64,000 nucleotides of DNA from Trichodelitschia bisporula. Its lineage: Eukaryota; Ascomycota; Dothideomycetes; Phaeotrichales; Phaeotrichaceae. Location: positions 245,923-309,922 of the forward strand of contig ML996698.1 in the NCBI GenBank assembly GCA_010356995.1, written 5' to 3'. Below, one piece after another: positions 39,280-45,300 of the stretch. Below the pieces are notes generated by a model. The model had not been told where the DNA came from. It saw nothing but the letters and a program-made list of their open reading frames with translations, and ran no database searches. The first letter of the stretch is position 1; every line of letters begins with the position of its first letter. The position numbers and the translations under genes are program-made.

Positions 39280-40500
39280 GGCGGGGGTTTAGTAGTAGGC
39301 GTTGGGAGATGGGGATTGGGATTGGAATGGGGATGGGGATGGAGATGGGGATGAGGATAGGGTATCTTGTGAGTATCTCGACTCCTGTGTATTTATGTGC
39401 AACGCGAATGTCATGTTACGTCATCTTTTGTAGGATCGGGAATGGTGGAGACCAGGAGAGCGTCCAATACAACACAAATTTGCTAGAAGGCTTCGACTTC
39501 CAACTACAGCGGAATATCACGGCACTCGGGACGAAGTCTGCAGAGATGACAGGCGTGGCGGTACAGAGCAGAGGTGGCGAGGCGACTGAGGGCAAGAATG
39601 GCGAAGACGATACTTGGGATATCACCTCGCATCCAGCATCAAGATCCAGCACCACCGGGGTCAATCGCCAGCACGCGCCGCTCCCTCCTTCCACTCGTCC
39701 CAACCCCTTCAAGGCGCCGTCGCTATGCTGGCGGGTGCATCGGACGAGACCAACCCAACCGCCGTATAAGTTTTACTTTCCGCAAAGTACTGCTATCGAT
39801 AGGGGGGGGGCAGGTATGGAATGGCCCAGCAGTATGGGCAGCAGCTCCATGACCGTCTGCACCACATGCCTCGATCCCGCGTTCGAAACCCTCCCAAGAA
39901 AAATCCCCTCATGGCTTTCAAGGCTTCTTTCGTACTAGAGGGGGTTTTCGTAAGCCGTGATGGCTAGCTTTTTGGTGTTTTGGGCTTTTTTTGTGGTTGT
40001 GTTCAGGTGTTTTTTTGCTGTTGTGGGATCTGGCTGAGGGGGCTGAGAGGGGAGCAACACGGCAAGGCAACACTGGCTGCAAGGTATCACGGTATATGCA
40101 ACCCTTTTGCTGGTTTGCTCAACGCAGCTCTTTTGACCGCTGAGTACAGATGGCCTGCGAGTTCCCCGCATGATCTAATCCGGTACACATTCTCTCCCGA
40201 GTTTCCCATCACAAGGCTTACAACAAGGAGTAGAATTTCAGTTGCTTCTTACAGCCACTGGGATTTCCTAGGACAATCCACTTCAAAGTGTATCATAAAA
40301 GTCCATATACCTCCCAAGCCTCGATCACTCAAGCATTTACACAGGAAAATAAAGCGTCAATCCGGATCCGTCACTGTTTCAACATGCTATCGTCCACCGT
40401 ATCAGCCATCAGCAAATGTCCATCCATATACTTTCGCCGAAAGGAGCAGCCCCAGATAAGGCGCAACCTTTCCCCCGGCCATCTAGTACCAAATATGTGA
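39280..40500. other. intergenic with a G-rich simple repeat
   Basis: Starts with an imperfect ggggat/gggatt array (about 39309-39360) just after the heme lyase stop. The rest shows no supportable coding sequence. Confidence 0.45.
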
Positions 40501-41059
40501 CTGCCCATGTCCACTTATAGCCATCCTGGTGCCGAATATACACGGTGTATATAGTGTTTGTCCCACGAACGGCTCCCAGAGTTGGAGCGAAGGATTCTGA
40601 CTGGAGCCCTTCCTGTGATCACCATATATCGAAACACGATCCCCGAAACCACCTATATGAGAGGATAAATGAGAACAGTCGGCACGAGGACGAGATCTGA
40701 AGGATGATGACGGTACACGAGGCGCGCTTCGAGCGGGGGAATGCGGGGAAGGGAAATGTTTCAGCGGTGGAGTGGAATGATGAACTCGCGGAGCTGCATG
40801 CGAGGAATGCGCGTCGGTTGTGAATCGGCGAAGGTGAGCGAGGTGTGCGCGCAAGACATGAAGGCGTCTCGAAGCGAGTCAACCCGTATAAGTGGCTCGC
40901 AGATTGCGGCATGGTTGCTTATCGTCGTCGGGGGAGACATGATGACCCCGTCCTTCGAGGCGCCTCTCGGACCAGGTTTGGCGGGGGAACCGAAACGTAT
41001 AATACCAGATGCAGATTTGGAAGCATGAAACTCTGTGGAGCGGAAGAGGGACGAAGTGA

Positions 41060-41790
41060 CTAAACCCAACGGCGATGATCTCCCTTCATGATGATAGGTG
41101 GATCGGATTTGGGGGGGAGGGAAAAGGTATATGACTTGATGCCTGTGAGCTTCCCTCGCACAACAGGCTCAACTATATCCATCTCGCGGGCAAGATTTTG
41201 GAACGCCCGCACGTTCGTATAAGAAACCTTGGTGCCCGGTGAGATGCTGTACAGAGTGTGCAGGTTGTCGAGGAGGTGGTCGGACAACATATACGAAAAA
41301 CGTTGATTGCCGTGTCGATGTCAAGATTAAACCTGCCGCTCTGGTTGAACAGCCGAGCTTGAGTGACCACGCCGTCGTCGCTGCGCAGTCTCCGGCGCTG
41401 TCGGGTATATCGCGGTGCCGTTTGATTGGTGGAAGGGACTGGAGCTGGGGGACTGACAGGGCGTAGCGAGGATGATACATCCGTGGAGATTCTCCACTCC
41501 TGCTGGAGCTTGGTCGCGTTCTCATGGGCGCAGAAGCCGCTCATTTGGAGCGCATTGCCGACCAGGTTCTCGAGAAGCTTCTCCAGCTTCTTCCAGCGGG
41601 ACAGGTAGAGGCGACGAGGGACGAACCCGCTCTCTAGGTCCTCAGGGAAGACCACTGCATCCGGGTGCTCGAAGTGGAACGCCCGGGCCGCTTGGAGGAA
41701 GTCGAAGCCCCACTCCTTGATGTAGTTATGGGCGGCCTTGTCGCTGAGACCAGAGAACTTTTTGAACAAAGAAGTCTCTACGGCCGTTCC
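41060..41790 (-). pseudogene. unrecognised protein-coding relic with a broken frame
   Basis: Two minus-strand frames read like parts of one protein. The upstream piece (about 41769-41300) has KFSGLSDKAAHNYIKEWGFD, ARAFHFEHPDAVVFPEDLES and SRWKKLEKLLENLVGNALQM. The downstream piece, one base out of phase, has YMLSDHLLDNLHTLYSISPG, VRAFQNLAREMDIVEPVVRG and KLTGIKSYTFSLPPKSDPP, then a stop at 41060. The switch falls at a run of five T's (about 41296), and no intron fits there. Further similar-looking coding lies upstream in yet another frame (PDDSEFVRKPLKGVHVERP, about 41790-41860). I recognise no family. It may be a young pseudogene or a sequencing error in a homopolymer. Confidence 0.5.
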
Positions 41791-42297
41791 ACATGTACGC
41801 CCTTAAGCGGTTTGCGGACGAATTCCGAGTCGTCGGGCTCTGGAGCCTTGGAGGCAGATAAAGGATATCATTCCAGGCACTTGACCTGATCCTCTTTCGG
41901 GAGCATCGAAATGTTGTTCTGGAATGGGTATGATACCCAGAGACCCTTATACCGGACTGGATCGCGATGTATTCGCGCTTGCATATACGCAGGGGCTTCC
42001 TCCAGCGGCTAGATGGAGAATGGACTGAGATAGAGAAGGAGGCGTAAGCGAGAGATGGGAAATGCAAGAAGGAGAAGATGGACTGAGAGTGAAAAGGAGA
42101 ATGATGAGTTTGCCAATACCTCTGCTTCGAGGAGCGACAGTCAGTCCAGTTACAGATGTGTTTGGGGAGATAATGGGAAGGCACGACCGACCGGCGCGGC
42201 GCGCACAGCGCGTGACGATTACGAGAAACCGATCGGGTTGTTGGTATGCGAAATGTGATCTGCCCCCTCAGTAAAGACACATACAAGCTGTCATCGA

Positions 42298-43132: not shown

Positions 43133-43482
43133 CAGTCCGAGCTTTGCAACCGCCTTGCGGGCTTTCTTCTCGTTGCGCGAGTGGACGGCAACAGACGAGT
43201 CCATGGGGATCACGGCCTCACCCTCGTTGTCGACCTTAGCATTCTTCCCCTATATACGAGCGGCGGCGCCGGCGGACCGCCGGTTGTCGGGGTCGTCAGG
43301 ATTTATAAGCGGGCCTTCTTCTCGTTGCGCGAGTGGACAGCAACGGACGCGCTTCGTCGTGGGTATTGAATGCCAGGTCCATGTCCTGGAGATGGTGCAT
43401 GAAGTTCTTCATCATCCCCAGCAGCGCTTCTCGACCTCAGAGTCATCGTCGGAGCCAGCGTCCTCAACCTCAACATTCTCCT
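43133..43482 (-). pseudogene. duplicated fragments resembling the NAC alpha subunit (EGD2)
   Basis: One copy (about 43243-43133) reads [13 protein letters not shown] and [23 protein letters not shown], the N-terminal signature of the nascent polypeptide-associated complex alpha subunit, and stops being similar right after KLGL. A second, partial copy at 43350-43311 repeats [13 protein letters not shown]. The acidic stretch ENVEVEDAGSDDDSEVEK at 43482-43432 fits the acidic N-terminus of the same protein. The two copies are about 90% identical over some 40 bases. No NAC domain beta-strands follow, so neither copy can be functional. Confidence 0.6.
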
Positions 43483-44079
43483 GATATACTCGCAGCGGCG
43501 CCGGCGCCAGACCGCTGGCAGCCAGGATCTGACCAGGATCTACTTTTCCAGGAAGTACGCCGTCGGGATGGGCCCACTGCGGAATATCTTCGTTAGGATC
43601 TATAAGGCGTGGACTTGCATTTTCTTGATATTCAAATGGGTTTTGAGGTGTTGGGAGAGGTTTGGAACTGGAGTTAGGAAAAGGTTGTGGATGGGTTGGG
43701 TTTGTGTGAACTGAGGAGGAAGAGAATAGGAAGAGAATAGGAAGAGGAAAAGGTTCAGAGTTAGAAGAGGGTAGCACCGTCGTTGTACACGGTAGGCGCT
43801 CCGAGAGCGGAGGTTTTCATATATAGTCGCTCCGTTTGCCGGGGGTGGTTTGCGCTTGGTGGATCGACGGAGGAACAACCGGTGCGAACCAGGTGGGACA
43901 CGCGGAAACAAGGGCATGCGCCTTGAAGCGCTATCTGTTGCTCGTTAGATGCGTTTACATCTCGTGTGAAGGGTTACTCACATAGATGCGTTTATATAAT
44001 TTCAAACTCATACTATCCCGATGGAGCCCGTCCGCTGACGTCGTTTTGTGCGCATACTTGACAGTTGCGGATTTGAGCT

Positions 44080-44470
44080 CCGGCGGGACGCGCGGTTGGT
44101 ACTCCTTAAGAAATGTCGAGATTGGGTCGTCGCTGTGGATTCATCGGAGACATTCGTCTTAACCGATGGCTTGTCCATGGCAGGCTTAGCAGCTTCCGTC
44201 GTCTTCGCCGTGGCGGGGGCAGGAGTGATAGCCCCAGCTTCGTCAGTTTAATACCAGTGTTCTTGAACTCCTCTGCCCGTACGACGTTGCGCAAATTATC
44301 AGAGCGGCTGCCGGACGTCGTCGATGCGTTGCGAGGGTATGTGCCGTTGAATCCCTTGATGATGTTGCGCGGGAAGGGTCAGACAGTAGGGACCACCGAA
44401 GCGTGATACCCAACGTCGGGTTGTCCGGTGGAATGGAAAGGTAAATTTCACGAATGCGCTGTCCCTCCAG
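44080..44470 (-). pseudogene. unrecognised coding-like relic in several frames
   Basis: Successive minus-strand stretches look translated but sit in different frames: RIREIYLSIPPDNPTLGITL with RWSLLSDP (about 44440-44370), NIIKGFNGTYPRNASTTSGS and NLRNVVRAEEFKNTGIKL (about 44350-44230), AITPAPATAKTTEAAKPAMD (about 44225-44165), and ISTFLKEYQPRVPPELKSAT (about 44130-44070). I do not recognise the family. Several indels, or several joined pieces, would explain it. Confidence 0.35.
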
Positions 44471-45300
44471 TCCATGTGGTTAGTCATGCCATTAAACAAA
44501 CGCTCGAGCATAACTTACCTTTGCGGTCCACACCCCGAGGCTTATAGTGGAGCGGAGCGGCGCGGTGCTCGGCACCGCGGCGTTTGCGATATATCGGCGT
44601 TGCCGCTGTCTGTTGATTGTTAGATGAGTTTACACCTCGCGTTAGGGATACGTACATAGATACGTAGATGACGACAGCTGTCGTATACACATCGGTCGCC
44701 TTGTACTCCTGAAGCACGTCGAGAAACTGCCAGACACCGCTAATCTTAGCCGTCACTCGGCTTTCCGAGTGGGCGTCAACCGGAATATAAGAAAAAGGTG
44801 GAAAGTAGAGCTTGTGCACAGAGAAAGTGTCCTTGAGGCATGGTTGTGGAGGAAGAAGAAGAGGAAGAGGCAGTGAGCACCGATTTTGACAACGCTCCTG
44901 AGCCGCGATGAATAAGCGCCCATGTGAATACCGCGTTGAGTAGTCGGAAATCTTGGCGCCCGTCTCGACAGTGAGTAATGGTAAAACGTTTTCCCAGCAG
45001 TGAATACCGCTCAAATGCGCAGTGATGGTTGACAGACCAGAGCCGCGGCCGGCATCACAGGAAGGCACGGCTGCGATTCAGCCTCGTCGGCGAATTTCTT
45101 GTTCGGCTCCATCCCCTGCGCCTCGGCCCGGTGCGGGACATACGCCTCTCGCCGCGCTTCTTCCCAGCCACCACTCCTTACATCAAAAGTCATCCCCATT
45201 TCCCCTCCCCGGTCAACCCCACCCAACCCTTCGAACATTCCCCGCCGCCCTCAACCCTCCAGCAACACACCAACTGACGTCTCCAGCGCCAAGCCCGTAA

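What the first reader, a model, noticed from the sequence alone, without database searches (positions are those of the whole stretch)
40500..45300. Mosaic of housekeeping-gene fragments on one strand
Within 1.2 kb, pieces resembling 6-phosphofructo-2-kinase (42298-42435), an Agc1-type carrier (42726-42936) and NAC alpha (43133-43482) follow each other, all on the minus strand, each cut abruptly, with further unrecognised coding-like pieces on both sides. Ordinary pseudogenes keep the whole gene; serial same-strand capture of short exonic pieces is what Helitrons, Pack-type DNA transposons or template-switching repair produce. No transposase or helicase is visible here, so this could be a non-autonomous element or a repair scar.
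Basis: partly seen in the sequence, partly recalled or inferred. Interest (0 to 1): 0.78.

Follow-up and report, generated by a model that had tools for sequence, protein, structure and literature searches.

The report
TATA-studded patchwork of captured gene pieces
A stretch between two genes of a fungus is a patchwork of short pieces copied from many ordinary genes, nearly all pointing the same way and peppered with the letters TATA, and several other places in the same genome are built the same way.

Summary
The window lies in Trichodelitschia bisporula (Dothideomycetes). Genome searches of 39.2-46.2 kb gave 20 non-self matches, one a simple repeat. They resolve into pieces of about 30-290 bp at 70-97% identity from genes such as COG4, AGC1, NAC alpha, a JmjC gene, GRASP and condensin. 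New features: (1) TATA occurs 7.6/kb against about 1/kb elsewhere in the window and is gained relative to the donors (26 in mosaic pieces, 3 in the aligned donor DNA). (2) Donor introns are kept, and strongly called pieces share one transcriptional direction per locus (12 of 13 here; 10 of 10, 5 of 5, 3 of 3 elsewhere). (3) Three of three other loci found by TATA clustering and tested are also mosaics; a fourth was not tested. Helitron, TIR-element, processed-pseudogene and single-gene readings fail the tests made. Best explanation: hotspots of repeated break repair that capture short gene-body fragments, TATA marking joints. Direction and TATA gain are not explained by any capture process I know; selection for TATA is a serious rival.

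The parts
39449..39631 (+). piece of condensin subunit 1 gene (donor C5:415.7k), 70%; the one strongly called piece in the other direction
39768..40000 (.). piece of a stretch without long ORF at C20:11.7-11.9k, 82%
   Evidence: codon score weak, leaning plus
40321..40478 (-). two colinear pieces (40321-40398, 40429-40478) from C9:821.7k: last codons and downstream DNA of a gene that I recognise from memory as ribosomal protein eS27; about 30 bp between them, ending in TATA
   Evidence: gene name recalled; codon score weak
40736..40866 (-). piece from C9:387.0k, just upstream of a likely start codon, 79%
   Evidence: direction from the downstream ATG read by eye; codon score weak and leaning plus
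40938..41152 (-). COG4 piece (40938-41036 and 41121-41152; donor C5:806.6k), interrupted by another piece
41033..41113 (.). piece from C6:1075.4k, 89%, lying inside the COG4 piece; 9 donor bases of COG4 missing at the joint
41157..41288 (-). AGC1-type carrier gene, EF-hand part (donor C11:334.5k), 86%; contains two TATA words absent from the donor
41494..41784 (-). piece of a 1017-codon ORF (donor C3:316.3k), 90%
41803..41851 (-). piece from C13:677.0k, 96%
41872..41957 (-). piece from C5:297.4k, 97%; one TATA gained from TGTA
42046..42200 (-). piece of a likely 5' flank at C16:78.6k, 89%
   Evidence: codon score weak
42301..42433 (-). 6-phosphofructo-2-kinase-type gene piece, histidine-phosphatase domain (donor C16:486.7k), 83%
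   Evidence: codon score weak
42727..42939 (-). AGC1-type carrier pieces (donor C11:333.5-333.7k), with a net 24-bp deletion and an 80-bp insert replacing 4 bp
43132..43482 (-). NAC alpha pieces, partly duplicated (43132-43236, 43309-43352, 43430-43482; donor C2:1751.3k), 83-87%
43528..43594 (-). JmjC-domain gene piece (donor C5:1283.5k), 87%
43610..43764 (-). piece from C12:222.8k, likely 5' leader, ATG and splice donor, 78%
44382..44551 (-). GRASP55/65-type gene piece with its intron (about 49 nt, limits read by eye) retained (donor C10:376.2k), 84%
   Evidence: codon score weak
44679..44801 (-). possible U1-70K N-terminal piece; weak profile match below the curated cut-off
   Evidence: E 5e-4, 21 bits, cut-off 23
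40093..44789 (.). TATA-rich stretch: 38 TATA in 39.9-45.0 kb against 8.8 +/- 3.4 in first-order simulations

Best explanation
The locus is one of a class of intergenic hotspots in this genome where DNA breaks recur and are closed by inserting short fragments (32-322 bp) of gene bodies copied from elsewhere, with small deletions, short overlaps and short fillers. Shown: the captured pieces; donor introns kept in the pieces where I could place one; one piece inside another; small losses or overlaps at several joints; one transcriptional direction per locus among strongly called pieces (one exception here); TATA gained against the donors and commoner close to piece ends; further loci of the same make-up. 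Inferred: that breaks start it; that fragments are joined by end joining or template switching; that direction is kept because the donor DNA is single-stranded and strand-specific (for example the displaced sense strand of an R-loop) and the break end always faces one way; that TATA words are scars of the joining.
For: Donor matches on many contigs: 20 non-self here, one a simple repeat; 48 for L044, some of them to other mosaic loci; 14 for L043; about 10 donors for L070 besides a 60-bp repeat. 59 non-overlapping pieces in 6 mosaic stretches: median 105 bp, longest 322. Introns retained in the GRASP piece, a DNA-methyltransferase gene piece at L043 and the L052 piece at two loci (alignments, donor reading, Pfam; the L052 intron rests on reading by eye); no spliced junction among the colinear continuations listed. 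Joints: overlaps of 10, 6, 4 and 1 bp in four adjacent pairs, the first within one donor; losses of 9 bp (COG4), 4 and 24 bp (AGC1). TATA lies 0-14 bp outside piece edges 40 times and 15-26 bp outside 12 times (15 and 12 positions). In yeast, insertions at breaks are mostly about 45-300 bp, can join 2-4 fragments and often draw nuclear DNA from fragile, R-loop-prone sites (PMC10802722, passages seen).
Against: I know of no report that break insertions are strand-coherent; the word 'orientation' does not occur in the one paper that I searched for it. TATA inside pieces is mostly gained without length change, unlike typical end-joining scars. Words one step from TATA also convert more often (8 of 124) than 12 of 13 comparison words. 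Alignment ends may fall at TATA because a TATA patch itself stops the alignment, so the edge enrichment is not proof. In-frame stops are rarer than a simple neutral expectation (2 seen against about 8), and half of the mismatches fall on third codon positions. No chance control was made for the joint overlaps.
Confidence: 0.42

Rival explanations
1. TATA-rich elements are functional non-coding DNA (a protein-binding or chromatin platform) kept by selection for many TATA sites; captured gene pieces are only raw material that slowly acquires TATA.
For: TATA gains 24 (at 22 places) against 1 loss. TATA 10.0-14.4/kb in the unrecognised, probably older, parts of six mosaic stretches against 2.8-4.5/kb in recognised pieces at four of the six. 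Background 1-kb windows with 6 or more TATA: 7 of 726; mosaic: 78 of 81. TATA kept in 24 of 47 mosaic-to-mosaic comparisons against 76 of 209 for other A/T-only words.
Against: Only 8 of 124 one-step neighbours converted, far from saturation. Conservation between copies is mild: all words 43%, TATA 51%, and 28 of the listed words score as high or higher. No spacing or palindrome pattern around TATA. Recognised pieces at two of the six stretches already carry about 10/kb.
Confidence: 0.25
2. A reverse transcriptase copied unspliced transcripts with template switching and the chimeric cDNA was inserted; one direction per locus follows because every RNA template is sense.
For: Strand coherence; most pieces that I could place lie in or next to genes.
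Against: Each intron-spanning piece that I could place keeps its intron, so only unspliced RNA would do. One piece lies inside another and identities differ widely, so a single chimeric cDNA cannot explain the locus. RNA-end features such as poly(A) were not tested.
Confidence: 0.13
3. Gene-capturing transposon (Helitron, Pack-type TIR element or hAT/mariner transduplication).
For: Such elements capture gene fragments, and TIR transduplication is reported in a Dothideomycete (PMC3538342; passages seen).
Against: No TIR at three loci, no Helitron 3' end outside a coding piece, no second copy of the mosaic found, no shared locus ends. Pleurotus Helitrons are reported not to capture host fragments (PMC4289320; passages seen).
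Confidence: 0.08
4. The loci are expressed chimeric genes in which captured exons are spliced into a protein or a long RNA.
For: Frames of 42 coding pieces hold 2 stops in 1567 codons against 16.4 if all changes fell at random in the mosaic, or 8.2 if half did; sense strands have fewer stops than antisense at all four loci examined.
Against: No continuous long frame through the locus. The sense-strand coding score here is far below genes (-1.1 against +5.7) though above shuffled DNA (-4.4); at L043 and L063 the sense strand beats antisense no more often (0.60-0.64) than in shuffled DNA (0.64). A 209-codon ORF of the locus has no database relative of similar length at E 0.01.
Confidence: 0.1
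5. Assembly or contamination artefact.
For: None found.
Against: Pieces differ from donors by 3-30%; the C1 and C2 loci lie inside long contigs with sharp borders to ordinary sequence.
Confidence: 0.02

Closest known systems
Captured or templated insertions at double-strand breaks (yeast; NUMT-like capture)
   Same: Short fragments of distant nuclear DNA, several joined together, small overlaps and losses; about 45-300 bp reported (PMC10802722, passages) against median 105 and maximum 322 here.
   Different: Here insertions pile up at the same loci, share one transcriptional direction per locus and gain TATA words; none of these is in the passages that I saw.
Transduplication by TIR DNA transposons in Pyrenophora tritici-repentis (PMC3538342, passages)
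   Same: Dothideomycete; cellular genes or fragments duplicated.
   Different: No TIRs found, no multicopy unit here.
Helitron gene capture
   Same: Several gene fragments with introns in one stretch; a sense bias in maize is recalled, not checked.
   Different: No Helitron ends or shared termini.
Repeat-induced point mutation (RIP) of duplications
   Same: The genome carries a C-5 cytosine methyltransferase gene, a type that I associate with RIP from memory; a size limit on surviving duplicates would fit RIP (inference).
   Different: Changes are not C-to-T dominated, and GC stays at 51-57%.

Membership tests
Break-repair insertions from distant loci | fragments of distant nuclear DNA joined at one site | tested here: met
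Break-repair insertions from distant loci | short overlaps or small deletions at joints | tested here: inconclusive
   overlaps of 10, 6, 4 and 1 bp (the 10-bp one joins two parts of one donor) and losses of 9, 4 and 24 bp; no chance control made
Break-repair insertions from distant loci | empty site in a relative or strain | not testable with these tools
   no relative genome held (output)
Helitron | 3' CTRR with hairpin at the element end | tested here: not met
   one candidate in three loci, inside the 41494-41784 coding piece; the 5' TC end was not scanned
Helitron | family members share terminal sequence | tested here: not met
   six edges of three loci: one 23-bp match at E 0.048
Pack-type / TIR transduplication | terminal inverted repeats | tested here: not met
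   none better than E 0.18 at the C2 and C1 loci; only a GGGAT-type simple repeat here
Pack-type / TIR transduplication | multicopy element | tested here: not met
   no second copy of the mosaic found
Processed pseudogene / retrocopy | introns removed | tested here: not met
   introns retained in pieces of three donor genes
Single spliced gene | pieces joined by a continuous reading frame or a known protein | tested here: not met
   a gene with many introns was not modelled
RIP-mutated duplicate | C-to-T dominated change and AT-rich product | tested here: not met
   G>A plus C>T 403, A>G plus T>C 335 of 1220 changes; GC 51-57%

The most novel reading that the evidence does not exclude
The genome contains many strand-aware gene-fragment collector loci: each takes up short sense pieces of transcribed genes, introns included, over long time, nearly always in one direction, and marks or matures them with TATA. 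That would be a directed or at least polarised DNA-capture process tied to transcription; none of my ten literature searches showed such a thing.
Probability: 0.28. Interest if true: 0.92.

Novelty: new variant of a known kind. Interest (0 to 1): 0.78.

Why it matters
If the direction bias holds genome-wide, these loci are a fossil record of where and how a fungal nucleus patches breaks, with donors, direction and relative ages readable from sequence. They would let one test whether transcription (R-loops or nascent RNA) supplies the patches. The TATA gain is a separate puzzle: either a mutational signature of the repair or selection on non-coding DNA. Loci of this kind can be sought by a one-word density scan, so other genomes can be checked quickly.

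Tried and rejected
Ideas dropped. Centromere (one locus per chromosome): contig C1 holds two TATA-rich loci, 327-330 kb and 1219-1221 kb, and TATA triples are spread over contigs C1-C16, as far as the capped list runs. Palindromic flanks, regular spacing or strand-specific context of TATA: none. TATA as an excision footprint at TA: many donors lack TA at the place. Rfam at gathering threshold on 38-47 kb and a tRNA scan of the window: nothing. A possible 8-bp target duplication around the NAC insert is better read as part of a local NAC duplication. A search with 40050-40330 found only itself.

Limits. By distinct donors with strong calls the direction test is 8 of 9 (p 0.04) here and 8 of 8 (p 0.008) at L044; these lists were typed. 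The five L043 pieces come from one donor, and some donors serve several loci, so pieces are not independent. At L044 14 of 24 pieces were weak, one leaning the other way. In one search seven donor loci were left out because their frame was doubtful, 42 of 59 pieces were used, and gap columns were filled with the donor base inside the count. Genome searches score only some candidates: 34 of 35, 40 of 48, 39 of 143. L045, also found by the TATA pattern, was not tested for donors. L070 was chosen for clustered, GC-rich spacers. The total extent of such loci was not measured: the TATA-triple count (348 genome-wide) mixes mosaics with AT-rich repeats, and the reversed control pattern is commoner (735).

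Papers. PMC10802722, PMC4289320 and PMC3538342 were seen as passages only; all others only as search listings. The statement that the class is not in print rests on ten searches of an open-access library, some of them on side questions.
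Full report
What was checked first. One search gave 4 non-self matches for 42.2-43.5 kb, one search gave 13 for 39.2-42.25 kb (one a simple repeat on C17), one search gave 3 for 43.4-46.2 kb: 20 in all. A local comparison with 17 fetched donor stretches placed pieces from 39449 to 44551. Most alignments are ungapped. Of ten donor ORFs scanned, eight had Pfam hits (condensin subunit 1, COG4, mitochondrial carrier with EF-hands in two ORFs of one gene, histidine phosphatase, NAC, JmjC, GRASP) and two had none.

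The organism. The flanking diphosphomevalonate decarboxylase is 100% identical to a Trichodelitschia bisporula protein on a contig of 970,100 bases, the length of C12. It is a Dothideomycete in Phaeotrichales. The next proteins are 72% identical or less, so no close relative was at hand.

TATA. TATA occurs 7.6 times per kb in 40-45 kb against about 1 per kb on both sides; the TA dinucleotide is not raised. First-order simulations of 39.9-45.0 kb give 8.8 +/- 3.4 against 38 seen. It is the most enriched four-letter word there. Over six mosaic stretches and 59 pieces (7243 aligned columns, 1220 mismatches) TATA occurs 26 times in the mosaics and 3 times in the donors: 24 gains at 22 places, 1 loss. 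Ungapped gains come from words one, two and three changes away (8, 9, 5). The mismatch rate next to TATA is near the piece average.

A class of loci. A TATA-triple pattern, of which the capped list shows contigs C1-C3, pointed to C1:1219 kb and C2:389-397 kb. C2:388-398 kb carries 9.6 TATA/kb and C1 12-13/kb in its densest 2 kb; both are multi-donor mosaics (48 and 14 non-self matches; the self match of the first is not in its table). A third stretch from that pattern, L045, is AT-richer and was not tested for donors. Of twenty stretches fetched around matches of these two loci, three are themselves TATA-rich (L049, L062, L063) and one intermediate (L058). A locus chosen from a second pattern scan (C11:680.5-684 kb) has 43 TATA in 3.5 kb and about ten dispersed donors besides a 60-bp repeat. 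So four loci (window, L043, L044, L070) were searched themselves and are mosaics; three more are TATA-rich and share donors with them. In 1-kb windows, 6 or more TATA occur in 7 of 726 background and 78 of 81 mosaic windows; the mosaic stretches were in part chosen for TATA. The C2 locus (388.5-398.5 kb) and the C1 locus (327-330 kb) have sharp TATA borders; among ORFs of 180 or more codons in and around them I recognised no transposase or helicase by eye, but did not search a library. The same search on 12 kb of ordinary sequence from this window showed a dispersed repeat and one other match, with 39 of 143 candidates scored.

Direction. With a codon score trained on ORFs outside the donor loci, strongly called pieces are 12 minus and 1 plus in the window, 10 plus at L044, 5 minus at L043 (one donor gene), 3 plus at L049, 1 minus at L062 and 1 plus at L063. 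Ten window pieces and 14 L044 pieces are weak; two of the former and one of the latter lean the other way. By distinct donor genes it is 8 of 9 in the window and 8 of 8 at L044.

Introns and donors. The GRASP piece keeps its intron; so do a piece of a DNA-methyltransferase gene at L043 and the L052 piece at two loci (Pfam; intron limits by eye). Some pieces lie just upstream of a likely start codon or span it. Hence DNA, or unspliced RNA, was the source. Three pieces had no gene that I could place (L028, L048, L050), and the gene next to L032 is unclear.

Order of events. One piece lies inside the COG4 piece; NAC is partly duplicated; at L044 a piece of one gene interrupts another. Identities run from 70 to 97%. 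So capture probably went on over time, which makes the constant direction harder to explain by one event.

Coding constraint. In 42 coding pieces there are 2 in-frame stops in 1567 codons; random placement of all changes would give 16.4, of half 8.2. Mismatches by codon position are 231, 168 and 407. On the other hand, the sense strand scores far below genes, and at L043 and L063 no better than shuffled DNA in the sense-antisense comparison; no long frame runs through the locus; and a 209-codon minus ORF has no relative of similar length in the protein database at E 0.01. I read this as decayed coding DNA with some unexplained stop avoidance.

Mechanism. Repair by captured fragments explains sizes, joints, introns and nesting, and agrees with what passages of the yeast paper report for size and complexity. 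It does not by itself explain direction or TATA. A polarised source such as the displaced strand of R-loops, met by a break end that always faces one way, would explain direction; this is inference. For TATA I cannot choose between a scar of joining (40 TATA at 0-14 bp from piece edges against 12 at 15-26 bp; alignment-end bias possible) and selection (rival 1). The piece size limit may reflect removal of longer duplicates by RIP; inference only.

Verdict. Real, not a known transposon type by the tests made, and part of a class. I found nothing like the class in ten literature searches; the mechanism is open.

Noticed in passing
window 47100-47310 and 51110-51310: Two copies of a dispersed short repeat (about 190 bp, both orientations) with dozens of copies at 66-93% identity across the genome; looks like a MITE.
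   Followed up: no
window 43929-43991 and 44604-44665: Two related stretches, 82% alike, that read on the minus strand like short introns (GT..CTAAC..CAG, by eye); their donor was not found.
   Followed up: partly
L061 (C5:963.3-965.0k): A C-5 cytosine DNA-methyltransferase gene is the commonest donor: 6 of 59 pieces, at two mosaic loci.
   Followed up: partly
L070 3425-3485: A 60-bp repeat with 35 listed matches in the genome.
   Followed up: no
L045 (C2:588-596k): TATA-containing but AT-richer region (GC 0.45-0.53) with internal inverted repeats, perhaps a mutated repeat rather than a mosaic.
   Followed up: no
window 25533-25697: A run of N in the window.
   Followed up: no
L044, L058, L062, L063: Short modules shared by several mosaic loci, some in both orientations relative to the stored strands; origin unknown.
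   Followed up: no
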